NCBI GenBank assembly: GCA_017450205.1
Contig: JAFSVF010000022.1
Coordinates: 1-55,837 of the forward strand
DNA from: Bacilli bacterium
GTDB lineage: Bacteria > Bacillota_I > Bacilli_A > RF39 > UBA660
Direction of reading: 5' to 3'
DNA: 55,837 bases
Position numbers and translations under genes: made by a program
Notes under the pieces: model-generated
Told to the model about the DNA's origin: nothing
What the model saw: only the letters and a program-made list of their open reading frames with translations
Database searches by the model: none
Part shown: one piece after another, positions 2,405-29,049 of the stretch
How the letters are laid out: every line of letters starts with the position of its first letter
Numbering within the stretch: the first letter of the stretch is position 1

Positions 2405-4114
2405 ATGAATGTAGAATTAAATACACCATCTTTTATAGAAGAATGGAAGAAAACTTTAAAAGCATCAAAAGAAGATATTATTAATGCAATTATTAATCAA
2501 ACTGAGATAAAAATTGTATTAGAACATAGTACCATCAAAGATGAAATTAATTATAGAAAAAATAATTCATATATACCTCCATTAATCCAAATTGAAGGAA
2601 ATACAATAAAAACAAAATATATATCACCAGAACTAATAAGAATAGTATTAGAAAATTTAAGTGAATCAATTGAAACTTTAAATGTACCTGGTGAATTCTT
2701 AAACTTTAGTGACTTATTAAAGTTATATCCTAAACTTACAACAATTAATGTTACAAATAACTATGAAATTAGTGAAAAAAATATAATAGATATTAAAAAT
2801 AATACAAAAATAGAAAATATAGAGGCAATAAATTTTGAAGGATTAACTACTGATTATAATTTAAATGCTTTATATTATAATGGCGATTTTGAGGAAATAA
2901 AACTTTTAGATTCTAGTTTAACTATTAGAAATCCTAATAAAAAATTAACTGCAAAAGTAAATTATTTCAATGTTCCAGATCTTTATGAAAACATAAATGA
3001 TGTTGTTAACTATATAAAAGAACATAATATAGACCCTAATTCATATAATTATTTTAATATCATTTCAAAAACATTAAATACAAACTATATATGCTATTCA
3101 AAAGAAGATAATGAATTAGAGTATGATGGAGATCTAACGAAGATAAATGAAATTATCAGTATAATAGAACAACTAGGAATCCATCCCAAAAATATATATT
3201 TAAGATTGGATAATAAAGATTATGACTATAAACAATTTAAAGGAATAAAATATCCAATTATTATAGATTACGGTGATGAATATTCTAATGCCACATTAGA
3301 AGAATTTATAGCAATGAGGGAAACTATTAATTATTATAAAGAACTAATTACAAGTTCAAATCTTTCTCCACTAGAACAAATAACATATGCTTATGATATT
3401 ATTAAATCTTTTGATTATAACGAAGGAATATATACAAGTGATTCAAGATCAATGCATAAAATAATAAACACAGGAAACATCGTTTGTGTAGGTTATTCAC
3501 AATTCTTAAAACAAGTATTACAAGAATTAGGATACAAAATTGAAACTTTTGATCTTAATTCTCCAGATATATATGGTAAATATCCTGATAATTATAATAA
3601 CCATGAAAGAAATATCATTAGAATAGATGATGATAAATATAATATACATATGGTTGCAGCTATGGATTCAACGTGGGACTCAGGAACAAATGAAATTAAT
3701 ACATATAAATTTAATGACAAAAACACTACTACGTTTGCTAATGTTAATAATCTAATTTCATATATACATTTTCTAATTCCAAAGAATGAATATATGTATC
3801 TATTTAAAGATAAATATTTACCACCATTTTTTACAATAAACCCATTAGATTTAAAAGAAAATTTCGATGAAATCCCAAATATAAGAATACCAGAAACAGA
3901 AAAAGAAGAAGGATTAAAAACACTTCAAAAGTTATTTGATAAAGGTGAAGGTAAAATTATAGATTACTATTTAAATTCAAAAAGACCATCTTTTGAGATA
4001 TTTAAAGAAGTAATTAATAATGTAAAAATGGCTGAAGGATATAATCTAAAAGAATCTCAAGATATTTCTAATAATATAGTATTAGAAGAAGAACCAATAA
4101 AAACACGTTTATAA
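2405..4114 (+). CDS. Large protein with a transglutaminase-like domain, function unknown
   Basis: 569 residues, transcribed towards the origin against its neighbours. The C-terminal third looks like a transglutaminase/protease-like fold: NIVCVGYSQFLKQVL (Cys361), NNHERNIIRI (His400) and AAMDSTWDSG (Asp421) are spaced as a Cys-His-Asp triad. The N-terminal part has leucine/asparagine-rich repeats (LLKLYPKLTTINVTNN) that resemble irregular leucine-rich repeats. There is no signal peptide or membrane helix, so it is probably cytoplasmic unless exported by another route. It has its own promoter (TATAAT near 2380) and a strong terminator. Whether it acts as protease, transglutaminase or binding protein cannot be told. 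Confidence 0.6.
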   Translation: MNVELNTPSFIEEWKKTLKASKEDIINAIINQTEIKIVLEHSTIKDEINYRKNNSYIPPLIQIEGNTIKTKYISPELIRIVLENLSESIETLNVPGEFLNFSDLLKLYPKLTTINVTNNYEISEKNIIDIKNNTKIENIEAINFEGLTTDYNLNALYYNGDFEEIKLLDSSLTIRNPNKKLTAKVNYFNVPDLYENINDVVNYIKEHNIDPNSYNYFNIISKTLNTNYICYSKEDNELEYDGDLTKINEIISIIEQLGIHPKNIYLRLDNKDYDYKQFKGIKYPIIIDYGDEYSNATLEEFIAMRETINYYKELITSSNLSPLEQITYAYDIIKSFDYNEGIYTSDSRSMHKIINTGNIVCVGYSQFLKQVLQELGYKIETFDLNSPDIYGKYPDNYNNHERNIIRIDDDKYNIHMVAAMDSTWDSGTNEINTYKFNDKNTTTFANVNNLISYIHFLIPKNEYMYLFKDKYLPPFFTINPLDLKENFDEIPNIRIPETEKEEGLKTLQKLFDKGEGKIIDYYLNSKRPSFEIFKEVINNVKMAEGYNLKESQDISNNIVLEEEPIKTRL

Positions 4115-4127
4115 CGTGTTTTTTATA
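4101..4127 (+). terminator. Terminator of the transglutaminase-like gene
   Basis: AAACACGTT (4101-4109) pairs with AACGTGTTT (4113-4121), followed by a T-run. The stem overlaps the end of the gene. Confidence 0.85.
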
Positions 4128-4131
4128 TAAC

Positions 4132-4156
4132 AAAAAAAGGAATATTAAATTCCTTC
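4132..4156 (-). terminator. Terminator of rpmE
   Basis: On the minus strand AAGGAAT and ATTCCTT form a stem followed by seven T, directly after the rpmE stop codon. Confidence 0.8.
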
Positions 4157-4357
4157 TTAGTCAAGATTATATTTTTTGTTAAACTTTTCAATGTTACCTG
4201 TTTTCTTTTTGTTTCCTTGAGCTCCAGTATAGAATGGATGACATTTAGAACAAACTTCGATATGTTGTTCTTCTTTATCACTCATAGCTTGGAAAGTAGC
4301 TCCACAAGAACATTTAAATGTACACATAACTTGATTTGGATGTAAATTCTTTTTCAT
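4157..4357 (-). CDS. rpmE: Ribosomal protein bL31 (zinc-binding form)
   Basis: 66 residues, a complete L31. The 'C+' form is shown by Cys16 and Cys18 (FKCSCGATF) and Cys36-x2-Cys39 (EVCSKCHPFYTG), the zinc ligands. It is a late-binding 50S protein that bridges the subunits. The ATG follows GGAGGATTTAG, a strong ribosome binding site. It is a single-gene transcript with its own promoter and terminator. Confidence 0.97.
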   Translation of the reverse strand: MKKNLHPNQVMCTFKCSCGATFQAMSDKEEQHIEVCSKCHPFYTGAQGNKKKTGNIEKFNKKYNLD

Positions 4358-4405
4358 CTAAATCCTCCTTCCGCCATGACCTAGGTAAGTCATAGAAATT
4401 CATTA
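4358..4405 (-). promoter_or_regulatory. rpmE 5' leader with a small hairpin (possible L31 leader)
   Basis: The minus-strand leader contains ATGAC and GTCAT arms (within 4376-4393) around TTACCTAG, just upstream of the Shine-Dalgarno. L31 leaders in Bacillota often bind L31 to control their own translation. The resemblance here is only positional and structural, so this is tentative. Confidence 0.35.
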
Positions 4406-4412
4406 CTGGTTT

Positions 4413-4442
4413 AGTATATAACAAAACACATATAAAAAGCAA
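4413..4442 (-). promoter_or_regulatory. Promoter of rpmE
   Basis: On the minus strand: -35 TTGCTT (4442-4437), 18-bp spacer, -10 TATACT (4418-4413). Confidence 0.65.
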
Positions 4443-9288: not shown

Positions 9289-10389
9289 TTATTTCTTTTT
9301 AGGAATTCTAATAACAAATTGATACATATCATCAAAAGCAAATTCTTCTTTAAGTACTTCTACCCCATTTTCATTTGCATTTTGAACCATTTCCTTTATA
9401 CCTCTCATAACATCATCAGTAGACTCATATTTAGGTTTTTCAATAATAATTTCTTTTTCTTTTGATGGTTTTACTTCTTCTTTTTCTTCTTCTACTTCAT
9501 CTTCGTCATCATCAAAATCTAATAAATCAACATCTTCATCGATATCTTTTCTAAAACCTGCACCTGCAAAAGGATTAAATCCATTTGCTCCACCATTCAT
9601 ATTAACAGAAGATGCTTCTAAATCATTAAGGAAAACATTATTATTTTTAACTGAATCATATTGATAAACATTAAAATTTTTAGGATTATCGATATTTGTA
9701 GAGTTTTCCATGATATTTTCAACATCTACATCATTTCTATTAACATTAATTCCACCAATTAAATCTTGTTTATTAGTTTGATATTCTCCTATGATAGTAG
9801 CTATCTCATCATCTAAAGTTTTTACTGTCCATCTTTCAGCAATAGTTCTATTTAACAATTCTACTTGTCTAAACTTATCTGTTAATTTTAATAAACTTCT
9901 AGCATGTCTTTCACTAATTTTTTCATTACTTAAAGCATCTTGAACAGCAGGATCAAGATTTAAAAGTCTTAATTTATTAGCAATAGCCGATTGACTCATA
10001 CCAAGTCTTGCTGCTAATTGTTCTTGAGTAACATATTTTCTATCTAAAAGTTTTTTATATGACTTAGCTTCTTCAATTGGAGTCATATCTTTTCTATGAG
10101 TATTCTCTATAATAGCAACTTCTGCTGAATCATTATCATTTAATTCAGCAATAATAACAGGTACTTGAGTTAATCCTGCAAGTTGAGCTGCTTTATATCT
10201 ACGTTCACCAGCAATAATTTCAAATTTATCTCCTATTCTTCTTACAGTTAATGGTTGAATAATACCATGACTACGAATAGATGCAGATAATTCCATTAAA
10301 GCTTGTTGATTAAATGTTAATCTAGGTTGAAATCTATTAGGAATAATTTGTTCAATATTAACTAGCCTAATTTGAGATTCCATTTTCAT
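9289..10389 (-). CDS. noc: ParB/Noc-family CTP-dependent DNA clamp, Noc-type specificity
   Basis: 366 residues. The CTPase half has GERR (61-64) and ENTHR (95-99, replacing the usual ENLQR). The HTH spans about 121-145. Residues Gln133, Lys139, Asn144 and Arg161 correspond to the four positions that separate Noc (Q/K/N/R) from ParB (R/T/A/G), so Noc specificity is predicted. Its position after rsmG is that of Bacillus noc. Unlike Bacillus Noc, it lacks the N-terminal membrane-binding amphipathic helix. The C-terminal region (about 200-366) is long, asparagine-rich, then very acidic. I chose ATG 10389 after AGGAAGGTG. No parA/soj is next to it. It could instead be the only ParB of the cell. 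Confidence 0.8.
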   Translation of the reverse strand: MKMESQIRLVNIEQIIPNRFQPRLTFNQQALMELSASIRSHGIIQPLTVRRIGDKFEIIAGERRYKAAQLAGLTQVPVIIAELNDNDSAEVAIIENTHRKDMTPIEEAKSYKKLLDRKYVTQEQLAARLGMSQSAIANKLRLLNLDPAVQDALSNEKISERHARSLLKLTDKFRQVELLNRTIAERWTVKTLDDEIATIIGEYQTNKQDLIGGINVNRNDVDVENIMENSTNIDNPKNFNVYQYDSVKNNNVFLNDLEASSVNMNGGANGFNPFAGAGFRKDIDEDVDLLDFDDDEDEVEEEKEEVKPSKEKEIIIEKPKYESTDDVMRGIKEMVQNANENGVEVLKEEFAFDDMYQFVIRIPKKK

Positions 10390-10454
10390 AGACTTCACCT
10401 TCCTATTCTATATTAATATTAGTATAAAAAACCCATTTAATCAATTGATTTGAC

Positions 10455-16714: not shown

Positions 16715-16979
16715 CTAAAATAACAAAAAAATGTATTATTTACTATTTATAAACAAAATTAACAACAATGTTTATAACTTTTTCAACGTAAAAAGTTATA
16801 AATTCTAAATAATTTGTGGAAAATGTTGAAAAGTCTAATAAAGTCCTTTATAATAGGCAATTAAATGGTGGATAACTATGTTAATAAGTCATTATTTATC
16901 CACATTGAAAAAGTATTTATTTCTTTTTAAGTACTTTTGATATAAAATTATTTTAGTGAAACAATGATAACGGGGCGAG
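16715..16979. other. oriC: Probable replication origin (oriC), dnaA-upstream part
   Basis: The rpmH-dnaA intergenic region carries a perfect DnaA box TTATCCACA at 16896-16904, one-mismatch boxes on the other strand at 16867-16875 (GGTGGATAA) and 16815-16823 (TGTGGAAAA), and a long inverted repeat at 16771-16802. Gene orientation switches here from minus to plus. The dnaA-dnaN gap (18375-18545) is nearly all A/T and may hold the unwinding region, as in the bipartite Bacillus origin; that is inference. Confidence 0.8.
16771..16802. repeat. 13-bp-arm inverted repeat in oriC
   Basis: TTTATAACTTTTT (16771-16783) and AAAAAGTTATAAA (16790-16802) are exact inverted copies around CAACGT. No gene ends near it on the plus strand, and it lies about 60 bp upstream of the minus-strand rpmH promoter, so a terminator role is doubtful. 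Confidence 0.7.
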
Positions 16980-23341: not shown

Positions 23342-25924
23342 ATGGAAGAAAATAAAGATTTAGAATTAAATGAAGAAACTGAAGTAACTGAAACTCCTGA
23401 AGAAGCTGAATTTGTTGAAGAAAACAAAATAGTATCAAAAGATATAGTATCGGAAATGAAAGATTCATTTCTTGAATACTCAATGTCAGTAATTGTAGCT
23501 CGTGCTTTACCTGATTTAAGAGACGGTTTAAAACCAGTTCACAGAAGAATTTTATATTCAATGTTTGAAAATGGTATTACACCAGATAAACCTCATAGAA
23601 AATCAGCTACAACTGTTGGTCAAGTTATGGGTACTTACCATCCACATGGTGACTCATCAATATATGATGCATTAGTAAGAATGGCTCAACCATTCTCATA
23701 TAGATGTCCGTTAATTGATGGACATGGTAACTTTGGTTCAATGGATGGTGATGGTGCTGCAGCAATGCGTTATACTGAAGCTCGTCTTGAAAAATTAACA
23801 TTAGAATTATTAAGAGATATTAGAAAAGATACAGTAGACTTCGAACCAAACTTCGATGCTACTACTAAAGAACCTTCTGTATTACCATCTAGATTCCCAA
23901 ATGTGCTTGTTAATGGAACAATGGGTATAGCAGTAGGTATGGCAACAAACATTCCTCCACACAACTTAAAAGAGGTAATAAATGGATGTTGTGCAGTTAT
24001 TGATAATCCTGAAATTACAACTATGGAATTAATGGATTACATTAAAGGACCTGATTTTCCAACAGGAGCAACTATTTTAGGTAACTCAGGTATCAAACAA
24101 GCGTACGATACAGGAAGAGGAACTATTACAATTAGAGGTAAAGTTGCTATTGAAGATAAAGGAAATCATCAACAAATTATAATTACTGAACTTCCTTACC
24201 AAGTAAATAAAAAAGAATTCCAACAAAAAATTGCGGAATTAGTTAGAGATAAAGTTATTGATGGTATTGCTGATCTTCATGAAGAAACAAACCTTGAAAA
24301 TGGTATTAGAATAGTAATTACTCTTAAAAAAGATGCAAATGCTAACGTAATATTAAATAATTTATACAAAAGTACTCAATTACAAACAACATTTGGTATT
24401 AACTTATTAATGTTAGATGAAGGAGTACCTAAAATTTTAGGATTAAGAGATATTTTAATAAAATATACAAACTTCCAAAAAGAAGTAATAATTAGAAGAA
24501 CTAGATATGATTTAGCTCGTGCAGAAGAAAGAGTTCATGTTTTAAATGGTGAAATAATCGCTATTGATAACATTGATGAAGTAGTACACATTATTAGAAA
24601 CTCTAAAAATGATGATGAAGCTAAAACTACTTTAGGAGAAAGATTTGGTTTAGATGATATTCAAACTGAAGATATCTTACAAATGAGACTTCGTAAGTTA
24701 ACTGGTCTAGAAAAAGATAAAGTAGAAGCTGAAAGAGATGAATTATTAAAGAAAATAGCAGATTATAATGATATTTTATCTAGTGATGCAAGAGTATGTT
24801 CAATCGTTAAAGATGAAATGCAAGATATAGCAAGACGTTTCGGAGATGAAAGAAGAACATATATCGATATGACAGCAATAGACTTTATTGAAGATGAATC
24901 ATTAATTCCTGAAGAAAACATAATGATTTCATTAACTGATAAAGGATATATTAAGAGAATATCAACAGACACTTATAAAACACAAAATCGTGGAGGAGTA
25001 GGTGTAAAAGGTATGTCTACTAATGAAGATGATTACGTTAAATACTTGATTAATTCTTCAACTCATGATTGGATCTTATTCTTTACTAATAAAGGTAGAG
25101 TATACAGATTAAAAGGTTATGAAATTCCAATTTATAGTAGACAAGCTAAAGGATTACCAATAATTAACTTACTACAAATCGAAAAAGATGAAAAAATAAG
25201 TTCAATTATTAGTGTTAAACGTGAAAATGATGCAAAATACTTAATTTTAGCAACAAAAAATGGTTTAATTAAGAAAACATCAATCGAAGAATTCGATAAT
25301 ATAAGAAAATCTGGAAAGATAGCAATTACATTAAAAGAAGATGATCAATTAATTGATGTAATGCTTACAGATGGAACTTATAAGATATTATTAGGATCTT
25401 CTGAAGGAAAAATGGTAATATTTGATGAAAATGAAGTAAGACCTATGGGTAGAACAGCTTCAGGAGTTAAAGGAATAAATTTAAATGAAGGTGCAACATG
25501 TATAGGTATGGATATTGGACATAATGAAGATAATATCTTAATAGTAACTAAGAATGGTTATGGTAAAAAGACATTATTAAAAGAATATAGAATCACAAAA
25601 CGTGGATCTAAAGGTGTTACAGCAGTTAATGTAACAGAAAAGAATGGCCAAATGATATCATTCCATAATGTAATTGATGGATTAGATCTATTAATTATTA
25701 CAGAAAGTGGAATGATTATAAGATTACCAATTGAACAAGTTTCACAACTAGGTCGTGTTACTCAAGGAGTTAAATTAATAAATCTTAAAGAAGAACAATA
25801 TGTTTCAACAATTAGTTTAACTATGAGAGAAGAAGAATCTAAAGAAATTAACAGTGAAAACACTCAAGAAAAAGAAAAAATTAGAGAAGAGACAAAAGAT
25901 GATAAACAAATTGAAGAGGAATAA
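23342..25924 (+). CDS. gyrA: DNA gyrase subunit A
   Basis: 860 residues. The active-site tyrosine is Tyr144 in [27 protein letters not shown] is the quinolone-resistance region with Ser and Asp at the usual positions. The GyrA box [10 protein letters not shown] in the C-terminal beta-pinwheel marks it as gyrase rather than ParC. The last about 35 residues form a charged acidic tail, and the N-terminus has an extra acidic stretch. A terminator follows. Confidence 0.98.
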
Positions 25925-25939: not shown

Positions 25940-25953
25940 AGTTATCAACAAAA

Positions 25954-25969
25954 TGTTTCACGTGAAACA
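25954..25969. promoter_or_regulatory. parS site 1
   Basis: TGTTTCACGTGAAACA, a perfect 16-bp palindrome that fits the Bacillus parS consensus bound by ParB/Spo0J. TTATCAACA precedes it by 3 bp, and the GACAG box begins 35 bp after it. Confidence 0.95.
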
Positions 25970-26158
25970 TTAAAAGTGAGAAAGAATGAAAAGAAAGAAA
26001 AAAGGACAGAAAAACGTCTTGTATTGAAATAAATGAATAATAAAAATATGTTAATAACTTAGATAAAATTAACAAATATAAAATATTATAAAAAAAGTAT
26101 ATTATTAAACATTATTTATAATAAGAAAAATTAAAATTATAAATTATTAACAAAAAAA

Positions 26159-26174
26159 TGTTTCACGTGAAACA
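26159..26174. promoter_or_regulatory. parS site 2
   Basis: Perfect TGTTTCACGTGAAACA. TTATTAACA precedes it by 6 bp; the downstream box is degenerate (GACAAAAGAAA, 45 bp away). Confidence 0.95.
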
Positions 26175-26316
26175 TATAAGTGAGAAAAAATGAGTGATAA
26201 ACAAAAAGAGACAAAAGAAAGAATATAAAAAACTATAGTTAAAAAATATAATAATTTAACAAAAAGAGAAATGAAAATAATAATATAAATTAATATAATT
26301 CTTTATATAAAATATT

Positions 26317-26365
26317 AGAAGTGATAAACAATGAATAAAGAAAAATAAAGACAGAAAAACGTTTT
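26317..26365 (+). repeat. Unit of the array that lacks parS
   Basis: The segment AGAAGTGATAAACAATGA followed by AAAGACAGAAAAACGTTTT matches the downstream part of the parS units, but no parS palindrome precedes it (26298-26313 is plain AT-rich sequence). Confidence 0.65.
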
Positions 26366-26458
26366 AATGTAGTGTTTTAGAAAAATGTAATTCAACTACT
26401 AAAATAATTGGTTATAAAATACAATGATTAGTTAATAAATTTGTAATTATTAACAAAA

Positions 26459-26474
26459 TGTTTCACGTGAAACA
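26459..26474. promoter_or_regulatory. parS site 3
   Basis: Perfect TGTTTCACGTGAAACA, preceded by TTATTAACA and AAA; GACAGAAAAAA begins 35 bp after it, as in site 1. Confidence 0.95.
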
Positions 26475-26623
26475 TTAAAAGTGATAAATAATGAATTATA
26501 AACAAAAAAGACAGAAAAAACACAATAATTTCAAATAAAAGAATAAAATATATAATAATTTTTAATAAAAAATAAAAGATGAAACAATAAAATAGTTAAT
26601 AAATATTAAATTATAAACAATAA

Positions 26624-26639
26624 TGTTTCACATGAAACG
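26624..26639. promoter_or_regulatory. parS site 4, degenerate
   Basis: TGTTTCACATGAAACG differs from the consensus at two positions (central G to A, last A to G). The flanks (TTATAAACA upstream, GACAGAAGAATC downstream) are still conserved. Confidence 0.75.
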
Positions 26640-26722
26640 TTAAAAAGTGATAACTAATGAACAATTAATAATAAAGACAGAAGAATCACTACTATATATT
26701 TAATCCATTAATTATATTAATA

Positions 26723-26751
26723 TTGAATAATACAAATGATAATGATATATT
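26723..26751 (+). promoter_or_regulatory. Orphan promoter inside the parS array
   Basis: -35 TTGAAT (26723-26728), 17-bp spacer, -10 TATATT (26746-26751). No gene follows; the next element is the hairpin at 26758. Confidence 0.5.
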
Positions 26752-26756
26752 ATTAA

Positions 26757-26803
26757 CGAGGACTGTTGATCTAACATATTGTTAAGTAGGTCCTCATTTT
26801 TTA
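26757..26803 (+). ncRNA. Candidate tiny RNA: hairpin plus T-tract
   Basis: GAGGAC (26758-26763) pairs with GTCCTC (26790-26795); a small inner TAAC/GTTA stem lies in the loop, and T6 follows at 26797-26802. The expected start of the upstream promoter falls at about 26757, so the whole transcript would be about 45 nt. No other transcript needs a terminator here, since gyrA is already terminated at 25934. Function unknown. Confidence 0.45.
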
Positions 26804-26841
26804 TTTAACAGAATATTGAAATAGTAAAGTTATCAACAAAA

Positions 26842-26857
26842 TGTTTCACGTGAAACA
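26842..26857. promoter_or_regulatory. parS site 5
   Basis: Perfect TGTTTCACGTGAAACA preceded by TTATCAACA and AAA. It lies 14 bp upstream of the SRP RNA promoter and has no downstream GACAG box. Confidence 0.95.
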
Positions 26858-26901: not shown

Positions 26902-26906
26902 TTACT

Positions 26907-26986
26907 TGCGCAACGGTTATATTAGAACCTGGTCAGAGTGGGAACACAGCAGCCATAATAATCTCTAATCGTGTGCGCTTTTTTTA
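26907..26986 (+). ncRNA. ffs: Signal recognition particle RNA (short 4.5S type)
   Basis: About 75 nt. The 5' TGCGCA pairs with the 3' TGTGCGC, and inner ATTAGA with TCTCTAAT; the apical domain IV has GGTCAG, GGAA and AGCAGCC, the Ffh-binding loops. T7 follows as terminator. It is the short form without the Alu domain of Bacillus scRNA. Its position next to tadA and dnaX is that of scr in Bacillus. It targets membrane proteins together with Ffh. Confidence 0.93.
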
Positions 26987-27002
26987 TTTGAAGAGGTATA
27001 TG

Positions 27003-27468: not shown

Positions 27469-29049
27469 ATGGACTATCAAGTATTATATAGAAAATATAG
27501 ACCTAAGAATTTTAACGAAGTAATTGGTCAAAATCATATTACAACAATTCTAAAAAATTCTATAGTAAATGATAAATTAGCACATACTTATATATTTACT
27601 GGACCAAGAGGAACAGGTAAAACAAGTAGTGCTAGAATCTTTGCTAAAACATTGAATTGCCAAAATTTAAAAGATGGAATTTGTTGTGACAAATGTGATA
27701 ACTGTTTAAATTTTAATAGTAGTCCAGATATTATAGAATTAGATGCAGCATCTAATAATGGTGTAGAAAATATAAGAGAGATAATTGATAACGTTAATGT
27801 TGCACCAACATATAATAAATATAAAGTATATATAATTGATGAAGCTCACATGTTATCTACAAGTGCCTGGAATGCATTTTTAAAAACTCTTGAAGAACCA
27901 CCAGAAAGTGTAATATTTATATTAGCAACTACTGAAATTAAAAAAGTACCAATAACTGTGCTTTCAAGATGTCAAAGATTTGATTTTAAGAGAATTGATG
28001 CTGAAGAAATCAAAAATAATTTAATGAATATTTGTAAAAAAGAAAAAATAAAATATGAAGAACAAGCATTGATGGAAATAGCTATTCTTGCTGATGGATG
28101 TATGAGAGATGGTTTAAGTCTTTTAGATCAAATCTCTAGAGTAAACGAAAAAGTATCTTTAAATATTATTAGAGAATATTTTGGTTTAGTAACTCAAGAA
28201 GATATTGATGAGATATATATGTCTATAATAAATAATGACATTAATACACTTGTTAAGAAAATAAATGATATAAAACAAACAGGCGTAGATGTTAAAAACT
28301 TAATTGAAAAATTAATTAAAGAATTTATTGATAAAGCAATTAGTATTAAGAAAAAAGGTATTAGTAATAATGTCTTTAAACAACTAAAAAATATGATTGA
28401 TAGAATCAATGAATTACTTGCAAAATTAAATCAAAATTCAGATGGCTATTTATTATTGGAACTTGAATTAATATCATTTATTAAAGATGATGAAATAAAA
28501 ATTTCTAAGAAAGAAGTTAATCAAATTATTTCCCAGGAAATAATTAAAGTTGACACTAAAATTGACGTCAACACTTTACTTAAACCAGAAGAAATTAATC
28601 ATTATAAATTAAATGATAAATTTATTGAAACTAGAATAAATAATACATTCGTAGGTGCAAGTAAAGAAAATAAAGTTAGTGCTTCTGAAAAATGGAATGA
28701 CTTTATAAATTATGTAAATGATAATGGTATTAATGAATATAAATTATTTAAAGATAAAGTAGTAATAGCTGCTGCAAGTGAAGATTATATTATTCTTCAA
28801 ACTGGTAGTGAATCTTTAAAAACAATAGGTAATTCAAAACTATATGATATTGAACAATTATTTAATAATAAGAATAATACAAATTATAAATTTATATTTA
28901 TTAAGGCTGATGAATGGAAAAATATAGTATCCAAATTTGATAAAAATAAAACATACAAATTAATAGATGAAAGTGAATTTATTCAAGTTAAAGATTCATC
29001 TATTGATACAGCAAAAGATTTGTTTGGAAAAAATATAGATATACAATAA
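27469..29049 (+). CDS. dnaX: DNA polymerase III gamma/tau subunit
   Basis: 526 residues. It is the ATPase motor of the clamp loader. Walker A is GPRGTGKTSSAR, four zinc cysteines lie in CQNLKDGICCDKCDNC, Walker B region is IIDEAHML, and the sensor 1 region has ILATTEIKKVPITVLSRCQRF. The C-terminal tau part is short. It has its own -10 (TATAAT near 27449). It heads a tight operon with ebfC, recR, holB, ricT and trmN6. I see no in-phase slippery site for a shorter gamma product. Confidence 0.96.
   Translation: MDYQVLYRKYRPKNFNEVIGQNHITTILKNSIVNDKLAHTYIFTGPRGTGKTSSARIFAKTLNCQNLKDGICCDKCDNCLNFNSSPDIIELDAASNNGVENIREIIDNVNVAPTYNKYKVYIIDEAHMLSTSAWNAFLKTLEEPPESVIFILATTEIKKVPITVLSRCQRFDFKRIDAEEIKNNLMNICKKEKIKYEEQALMEIAILADGCMRDGLSLLDQISRVNEKVSLNIIREYFGLVTQEDIDEIYMSIINNDINTLVKKINDIKQTGVDVKNLIEKLIKEFIDKAISIKKKGISNNVFKQLKNMIDRINELLAKLNQNSDGYLLLELELISFIKDDEIKISKKEVNQIISQEIIKVDTKIDVNTLLKPEEINHYKLNDKFIETRINNTFVGASKENKVSASEKWNDFINYVNDNGINEYKLFKDKVVIAAASEDYIILQTGSESLKTIGNSKLYDIEQLFNNKNNTNYKFIFIKADEWKNIVSKFDKNKTYKLIDESEFIQVKDSSIDTAKDLFGKNIDIQ

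What the first reader, a model, noticed from the sequence alone, without database searches (positions are those of the whole stretch)
25942..26857. parS sites arranged as a composite repeat with a conserved downstream segment
Five parS palindromes (four perfect) lie in about 900 bp. Sites 1 and 3 have the sequence GACAGAAAAA exactly 35 bp downstream; site 4 has GACAGAAGAA at 36 bp; site 2 a decayed version at 45 bp. Between lies GTGA(G/T)AA..AATGA at fixed distance. Isolated parS sites do not need such flanks, so the array has either spread by unit duplication or the flank binds a second factor (inference).
Basis: seen in the sequence. Interest (0 to 1): 0.75.

Follow-up and report, generated by a model that had tools for sequence, protein, structure and literature searches.

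The report
Composite parS units beside the origin
In this uncultured Bacilli genome the DNA that marks the chromosome for segregation is built from repeated compound units, each a ParB-binding site with a DnaA-box-like word before it and usually a two-part conserved motif after it, and other species of the family pair the same ParB site with different partner motifs, often the Noc site.

Summary
Five parS sites (four perfect) lie between gyrA and the SRP RNA gene, about 9 kb from oriC. Four are followed by a bipartite motif, GTGAKARANAATGA, 13-14 bp, then RRGACARARRAA. It missed a fifth motif copy that has no parS (26321-26359), and a DnaA-box-like word (TTATNAACA) directly upstream of every parS.

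The consensus motif was found only in this array genome-wide, and in two sister species. The two blocks are 80% and 90% identical between copies, while the gap and the DNA beyond are at the composition baseline. Simple neutral duplication does not give that pattern. Flank copies persist at matching positions in two species where parS is gone. The other eight congeners have parS without this flank. Across the family, tandem duplication of parS units is plain, and several genera pair parS with the Noc site at a fixed, species-specific spacing.

Best reading: units spread by duplication, and the flank is kept as the site of an unidentified second factor, a lineage-specific composite centromere. 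Factor and selection are inferred; so is DnaA coupling.

The parts
25942..25950 (+). DnaA-box-like word TTATCAACA upstream of parS site 1 (TTATCCACA in sister species G007)
25954..25969 (+). parS site 1, perfect
25976..25989 (+). flank block 1, copy 1 (GTGAGAAAGAATGA)
26003..26014 (+). flank block 2, copy 1 (AGGACAGAAAAA)
26144..26152 (+). DnaA-box-like word TTATTAACA upstream of site 2
26159..26174 (+). parS site 2, perfect
26180..26193 (+). flank block 1, copy 2
26208..26219 (+). flank block 2, copy 2 (GAGACAAAAGAA), 35 bp to GACA, not 45
26321..26334 (+). flank block 1 of the copy without parS (x); 9 of 16 parS positions match upstream, not significant
26348..26359 (+). flank block 2 of the copy without parS
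26447..26455 (+). DnaA-box-like word TTATTAACA upstream of site 3
26459..26474 (+). parS site 3, perfect
26481..26494 (+). flank block 1, copy 3
26508..26519 (+). flank block 2, copy 3
26611..26619 (+). DnaA-box-like word TTATAAACA upstream of site 4
26624..26639 (+). parS site 4, two mismatches; the matching place in G007 has lost parS
26647..26660 (+). flank block 1, copy 4
26674..26685 (+). flank block 2, copy 4
26830..26838 (+). DnaA-box-like word TTATCAACA upstream of site 5
26842..26857 (+). parS site 5, perfect, no flank; just upstream of the likely ffs promoter
26902..26987 (+). ffs, bacterial small SRP RNA, bounding the array
23342..25924 (+). gyrA, bounding the array
9289..10398 (-). 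oriC-proximal ParB-family gene of Noc type (Q173, K179, R201 pattern)
   Evidence: residues from PMC7383237
28528..28541 (+). Noc-site-like word ATTTCCCAGGAAAT inside dnaX; also present downstream of the array in sister species G004 and G007
16747..16904 (.). oriC candidate: DnaA-box cluster upstream of dnaA, with the same TTATNAACA variants as the array

Best explanation
The gyrA-ffs gap is the chromosome's centromere (parS cluster), about 9 kb from oriC. It is made of oriented composite units: DnaA-box-like word, parS, then a bipartite motif. The units spread by duplication. Afterwards the two blocks of the flank were kept by selection while the DNA between and around them drifted, because a second sequence-specific protein, not identified, binds the bipartite motif next to ParB loaded at parS. 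The motif is specific to this small clade. Other lineages of the family fill the same place with other partner motifs, most clearly the Noc site at a fixed distance. Shown here: the units, their restriction to the array and the clade, the block conservation, and the parS-Noc-site units elsewhere. Inferred: that a protein binds the flank, that selection maintains it, and that the upstream words bind DnaA.
For: Between 11 copies in three species block 1 is 80% identical (baseline 35%), block 2 90% (53%), the gap 59% (58%) and the next 40 bp 40% (36%). The block-gap difference, 0.249, was not reached in 2000 simulations of uniform neutral decay with free gap placement (maximum 0.236). The motif is array-specific: 5 of 7 loose-pattern matches in the 1.4-Mb genome are here, and the other two do not match the full consensus. 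Flank copies persist without recognisable parS at matching places in G000 and G007. Several genera have parS plus Noc site at constant spacing: 21/21/20/21, 31/30/29/30/31, 43 x4, 44/45/44 bp. DnaA-box-like words in the array: 7 against 0.49 expected; the oriC gap uses the same variants.
Against: Only three sister species carry the motif, and one array is split between contigs. Copies share some species-specific letters (GACAGAAGAA in all strong G007 copies), as gene conversion would give. Eight congeners do without it. The block borders were drawn after looking at the data, and the simulation margin is narrow. The flank of G007 'y' is decaying. No binding protein is known and no binding data exist. 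Position matches in the array alignment are approximate because most spacers align poorly.
Confidence: 0.5

Rival explanations
1. Passenger of duplication: parS+flank units were copied within the array and are homogenised by short gene conversion; the flank has no function of its own.
For: Tandem duplication of parS units is plain in other genera; copies in one species share some letters, mean identity within species 0.65-0.66 against 0.63 between; flank type differs between congeners.
Against: Similarity is confined to two blocks around a baseline gap of nearly constant length; flanks persist where parS is gone; the within-species excess is small.
Confidence: 0.28
2. Extended ParB site: ParB itself (a second surface, or a second dimer) contacts the flank, as plasmid P1 ParB reads two kinds of box.
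For: Fixed distance and orientation to parS; the whole unit inverts together in G004.
Against: Flank copies without parS persist; site 5 lacks the flank in all three species; the other congeners have parS without it.
Confidence: 0.1
3. The array is an oriC-proximal DnaA-binding cluster in which parS and DnaA sites are coupled; the flank is secondary. This can be true together with the best explanation.
For: Each parS has a TTATNAACA word just upstream; 7 against 0.49 expected; same variants at oriC; words point toward parS in 11 of 42 loci against 2.3 expected.
Against: Most words have A at position 6 of the box where DnaA prefers C; the excess is concentrated in a few lineages; the pattern was chosen after viewing.
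Confidence: 0.3
4. The flank is transcribed: a repeated small RNA, regulatory hairpin or small ORF.
For: Flank orientation mostly follows gyrA and ffs.
Against: No stable fold in any copy, z from -1.5 to 0.95; spacing between blocks varies 12-15 bp, so no reading frame is kept; no Rfam match.
Confidence: 0.03

Closest known systems
Chromosomal parS/ParB (Spo0J) clusters of Firmicutes
   Same: Exact 16-bp consensus TGTTTCACGTGAAACA (PMC7383237), near oriC, with a parA-parB pair in the genome.
   Different: Five sites in 0.9 kb of one gap instead of kb-scale clusters (PMC8357415: 5-40 kb in most bacteria); each site carries companion motifs.
Noc and its sites (NBS)
   Same: A Noc-type protein is encoded near oriC, and a Noc-site-like word lies in dnaX; other genera interleave NBS with parS.
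   Different: The flank motif here is not palindromic and is not an NBS.
Plasmid centromeres built from repeated or two-motif units: F sopC, P1 parS (own knowledge)
   Same: Multiple units, each with a ParB-type site; P1 adds a second motif and a host-factor site.
   Different: Here chromosomal, the second motif is lineage-specific, and its reader is unknown.
pAMI4 3parS locus of Paracoccus (PMC9040568)
   Same: Three parS copies in one long AT-rich gap with local similarities in their immediate vicinity.
   Different: A repABC replicon with another parS sequence; in the parts I read, no cross-species test of the neighbouring sequences.
oriC-proximal DnaA-box clusters of Bacillus (own knowledge)
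   Same: DnaA-box-like words clustered near oriC outside it.
   Different: Here the words abut parS; binding untested.

Membership tests
Chromosomal parS centromere | 16-bp palindrome TGTTTCACGTGAAACA in several copies near oriC | tested here: met
   GC-skew minimum at 16-18 kb with dnaA
Chromosomal parS centromere | cognate ParA and parS-type ParB encoded | tested here: met
   parA-parB at G000:C11, HTH with KSR as in parS-reading ParB
Chromosomal parS centromere | ParB binding in the cell | not testable with these tools
   needs ChIP or in vitro binding
Noc site (NBS) | flank contains ATTTCCCGGGAAAT | tested here: not met
   no NBS in the array; one NBS-like word in dnaX
DnaA box | TTATNCACA | tested here: inconclusive
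   array words are TTATNAACA, one mismatch; G007 site 1 has TTATCCACA; oriC of this genome uses the same variants
Simple tandem repeat array | uniform similarity over the whole unit | tested here: not met
   similarity confined to parS, upstream word and two flank blocks
Second-factor binding site | a protein that binds the flank | not testable with these tools
   needs pull-down, DAP-seq or EMSA

The most novel reading that the evidence does not exclude
In this Bacilli family the chromosomal centromere is a composite of parS plus a partner site at fixed spacing whose identity turns over between lineages: the Noc site in several genera, and an unknown bipartite motif in the window's clade. A second, fast-changing factor would thus be wired to ParB loading, with DnaA-box-like words tying some arrays to replication control.
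Probability: 0.35. Interest if true: 0.75.

Novelty: new variant of a known kind. Interest (0 to 1): 0.58.

Why it matters
Chromosomal parS is usually treated as a bare 16-bp site whose surroundings do not matter. A family in which parS sits in compound units, with Noc sites or an unknown motif at fixed distance and DnaA-box-like words abutting, would give natural constructs for asking whether segregation, division control and replication initiation are coupled at the DNA itself. It would also show how a centromere's partner sites turn over while parS stays fixed.

Tried and rejected
Coding reading of the flank: gap lengths of 12-15 bp break any frame. RNA structure: no copy folds clearly better than shuffles. 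Flank as a general motif of these bacteria: a scan of 84,980 genomes for parS plus GTGAKARA found only two genomes of this clade; from their record titles the other 13 look like single chance hits in other taxa. Flank as a Noc site: no NBS in the array. Parallel flank motifs in G001 and G009 (AATAGGG/TAGGGGA) were seen but are too few to claim. One paper search failed on a two-letter term. Literature searches for parS with adjacent DnaA boxes or interspersed Noc sites turned up no description of such arrays among the titles and abstracts listed; subscription journals are not covered.

Full report
What was checked. The five parS sites are in the window as stated and are far beyond chance. They lie in the 977-bp gap between gyrA and the SRP RNA gene ffs, to the right of oriC: the GC skew changes sign at 16-18 kb, where dnaA lies. 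In the whole 1.41-Mb draft genome the only other parS with at most one mismatch is a lone site at C8:73846. The fifth parS, next to ffs, has no flank. A fifth flank, at 26321-26359, has no parS.

What the flank is. It is a bipartite motif, GTGAKARANAATGA, a gap of 12-15 bp, then RRGACARARRAA. Five copies stand in the window array; the next best place in 55.8 kb is far weaker. Searched loosely in 11 genomes of the genus, it occurs five times in the window's array, five times in the array of G007 and once in that of G004; elsewhere only scattered matches without the full consensus appear. A sixth, weak copy is in G007. These three form a close group: relative to the window GyrA is 92-96%, DnaX 88-93% and TadA 63-71% identical, against GyrA 70-73% for the other congeners. 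A scan of 84,980 genomes for parS followed by GTGAKARA found these two relatives plus 13 further loci with one hit each, whose record titles name other taxa.

Duplication or constraint. Over 11 copies the two blocks are 80% and 90% identical against 35% and 53% for shuffled letters, while the gap (59% against 58%) and the 40 bp beyond (40% against 36%) are at the composition baseline. A simulation of uniform neutral decay, allowing the gap to be placed wherever it looks best, reached at most 0.236 for the block-gap difference in 2000 runs; the observed value is 0.249. That is a modest margin, with block borders drawn by eye. In the alignment of G000 and G007, flank copy x falls between matching sites in both species, and in both no significant parS remains (9 of 16 positions in G000, P 0.07; 6 of 16 in G007). 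G000 site 4 matches a place in G007 where parS is gone and the flank is decaying. In G004 one whole unit is inverted relative to gyrA, keeping its internal geometry. Some within-species sharing of letters suggests that homogenisation also acts. I read this as spread by duplication followed by selective retention of the blocks. The selection step is an inference.

The upstream word. Directly before every parS lies TTATNAACA, a DnaA-box-like nonamer. The array holds 7 words of the form TTATNMACA against 0.49 expected from dinucleotide shuffles, and the oriC gap, which mixes the same variants with TTATCCACA, holds 4 against 0.14. At matching sites of the sister species the word varies between TTATCAACA, TTATAAACA, TTATCCACA and TTTTCCACA. 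Across 42 loci of the family a TTATNNACA word points toward parS in 11 loci against 2.3 expected, but most of the excess is in a few lineages. Binding by DnaA is not shown.

The family picture. In a sample of 58 genomes from 57 genera 39 have an exact parS. Among 32 arrays with at least three sites 23 show at least one pair of flanks more similar than shuffles at z above 5; single left-right pairs can reflect a shared short spacer, so this is a rough count. Some are plain tandem repeats: units of about 37, 39, 63, 106 and 125 bp. Several genera carry a Noc site at constant spacing from parS: 21/21/20/21 bp in L053, 31/30/29/30/31 in L055, 43 four times in L058, 44/45/44 in L063. Within the genus, G006 has another flank in all seven copies, TTGACCATTTTAGTACGTAATTACGTTA-like, plus a GC-rich hairpin in five of the seven units. 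So composite units are common here and the partner differs by lineage. That precedent is the main reason to favour a second factor for the window's flank.

Proteins. The ParB-family gene next to oriC (9289-10398, minus strand) is of Noc type. Its best solved relatives are Noc, and it has Q173, K179 and R201 by alignment of its sequence with the residues given in PMC7383237; position 184 is N instead of K. It stays below NCBI's cut-off for the Noc family. The parA-parB pair lies on another contig. One Noc-site-like word lies in dnaX at 28528 and recurs downstream of the array in G004 and G007.

Literature. Open papers describe parS clusters of 5-40 kb in most bacteria (PMC8357415) and, for a repABC replicon, three parS sites with local similarities in their vicinity (PMC9040568). 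I found no account of chromosomal parS-Noc-site composite arrays or of parS with abutting DnaA-like words in the searches made. That is a statement about this library only, and mostly about titles and abstracts.

Limits. The genomes are drafts, G004's array is broken across contigs, and only three species carry the motif. The organism's name was not established: the two sister genomes are titled 'uncultured Bacillales bacterium' and 'Bacilli bacterium'.

Noticed in passing
L053, L055, L058, L063 (also L017, L036): parS and Noc sites (ATTTCCCGGGAAAT) alternate at constant, species-specific spacing (about 21, 30, 43, 44 bp) in arrays of other genera: a composite ParB-Noc centromere.
   Followed up: partly
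L018 (G006), positions about 3090-4440: Seven parS units with their own conserved flank (TTGACCATTTTAGTACGTAATTACGTTA-like) and, in five of the seven, a GC-rich hairpin whose stems vary on both sides (GCGCAGCAA/TTGCTGCGC, GCGCAACTA/TAGTTGCGC).
   Followed up: partly
L050, L056, L064, L052, L059: Regular tandem parS repeats with units of about 63, 37, 39, 54 and 106 bp: parS array growth by unit duplication.
   Followed up: no
window 9289-10398: The ParB-family gene beside oriC is of Noc type, while parA-parB lies on another contig (G000:C11).
   Followed up: partly
window 28528-28541: Noc-site-like ATTTCCCAGGAAAT inside dnaX, also found downstream of the array in G004 and G007; several other congeners have a Noc site near the array too.
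   Followed up: partly
G000:C8:73846-73861 (not in window): A lone parS with one mismatch on another contig, away from the array.
   Followed up: no
window 26757-26796: GC-stem hairpin followed by T-rich DNA (GAGGACT...AGGTCCTC ATTTTTT) between parS sites 4 and 5, fold z -2.1; not seen in the aligned G007 array.
   Followed up: no
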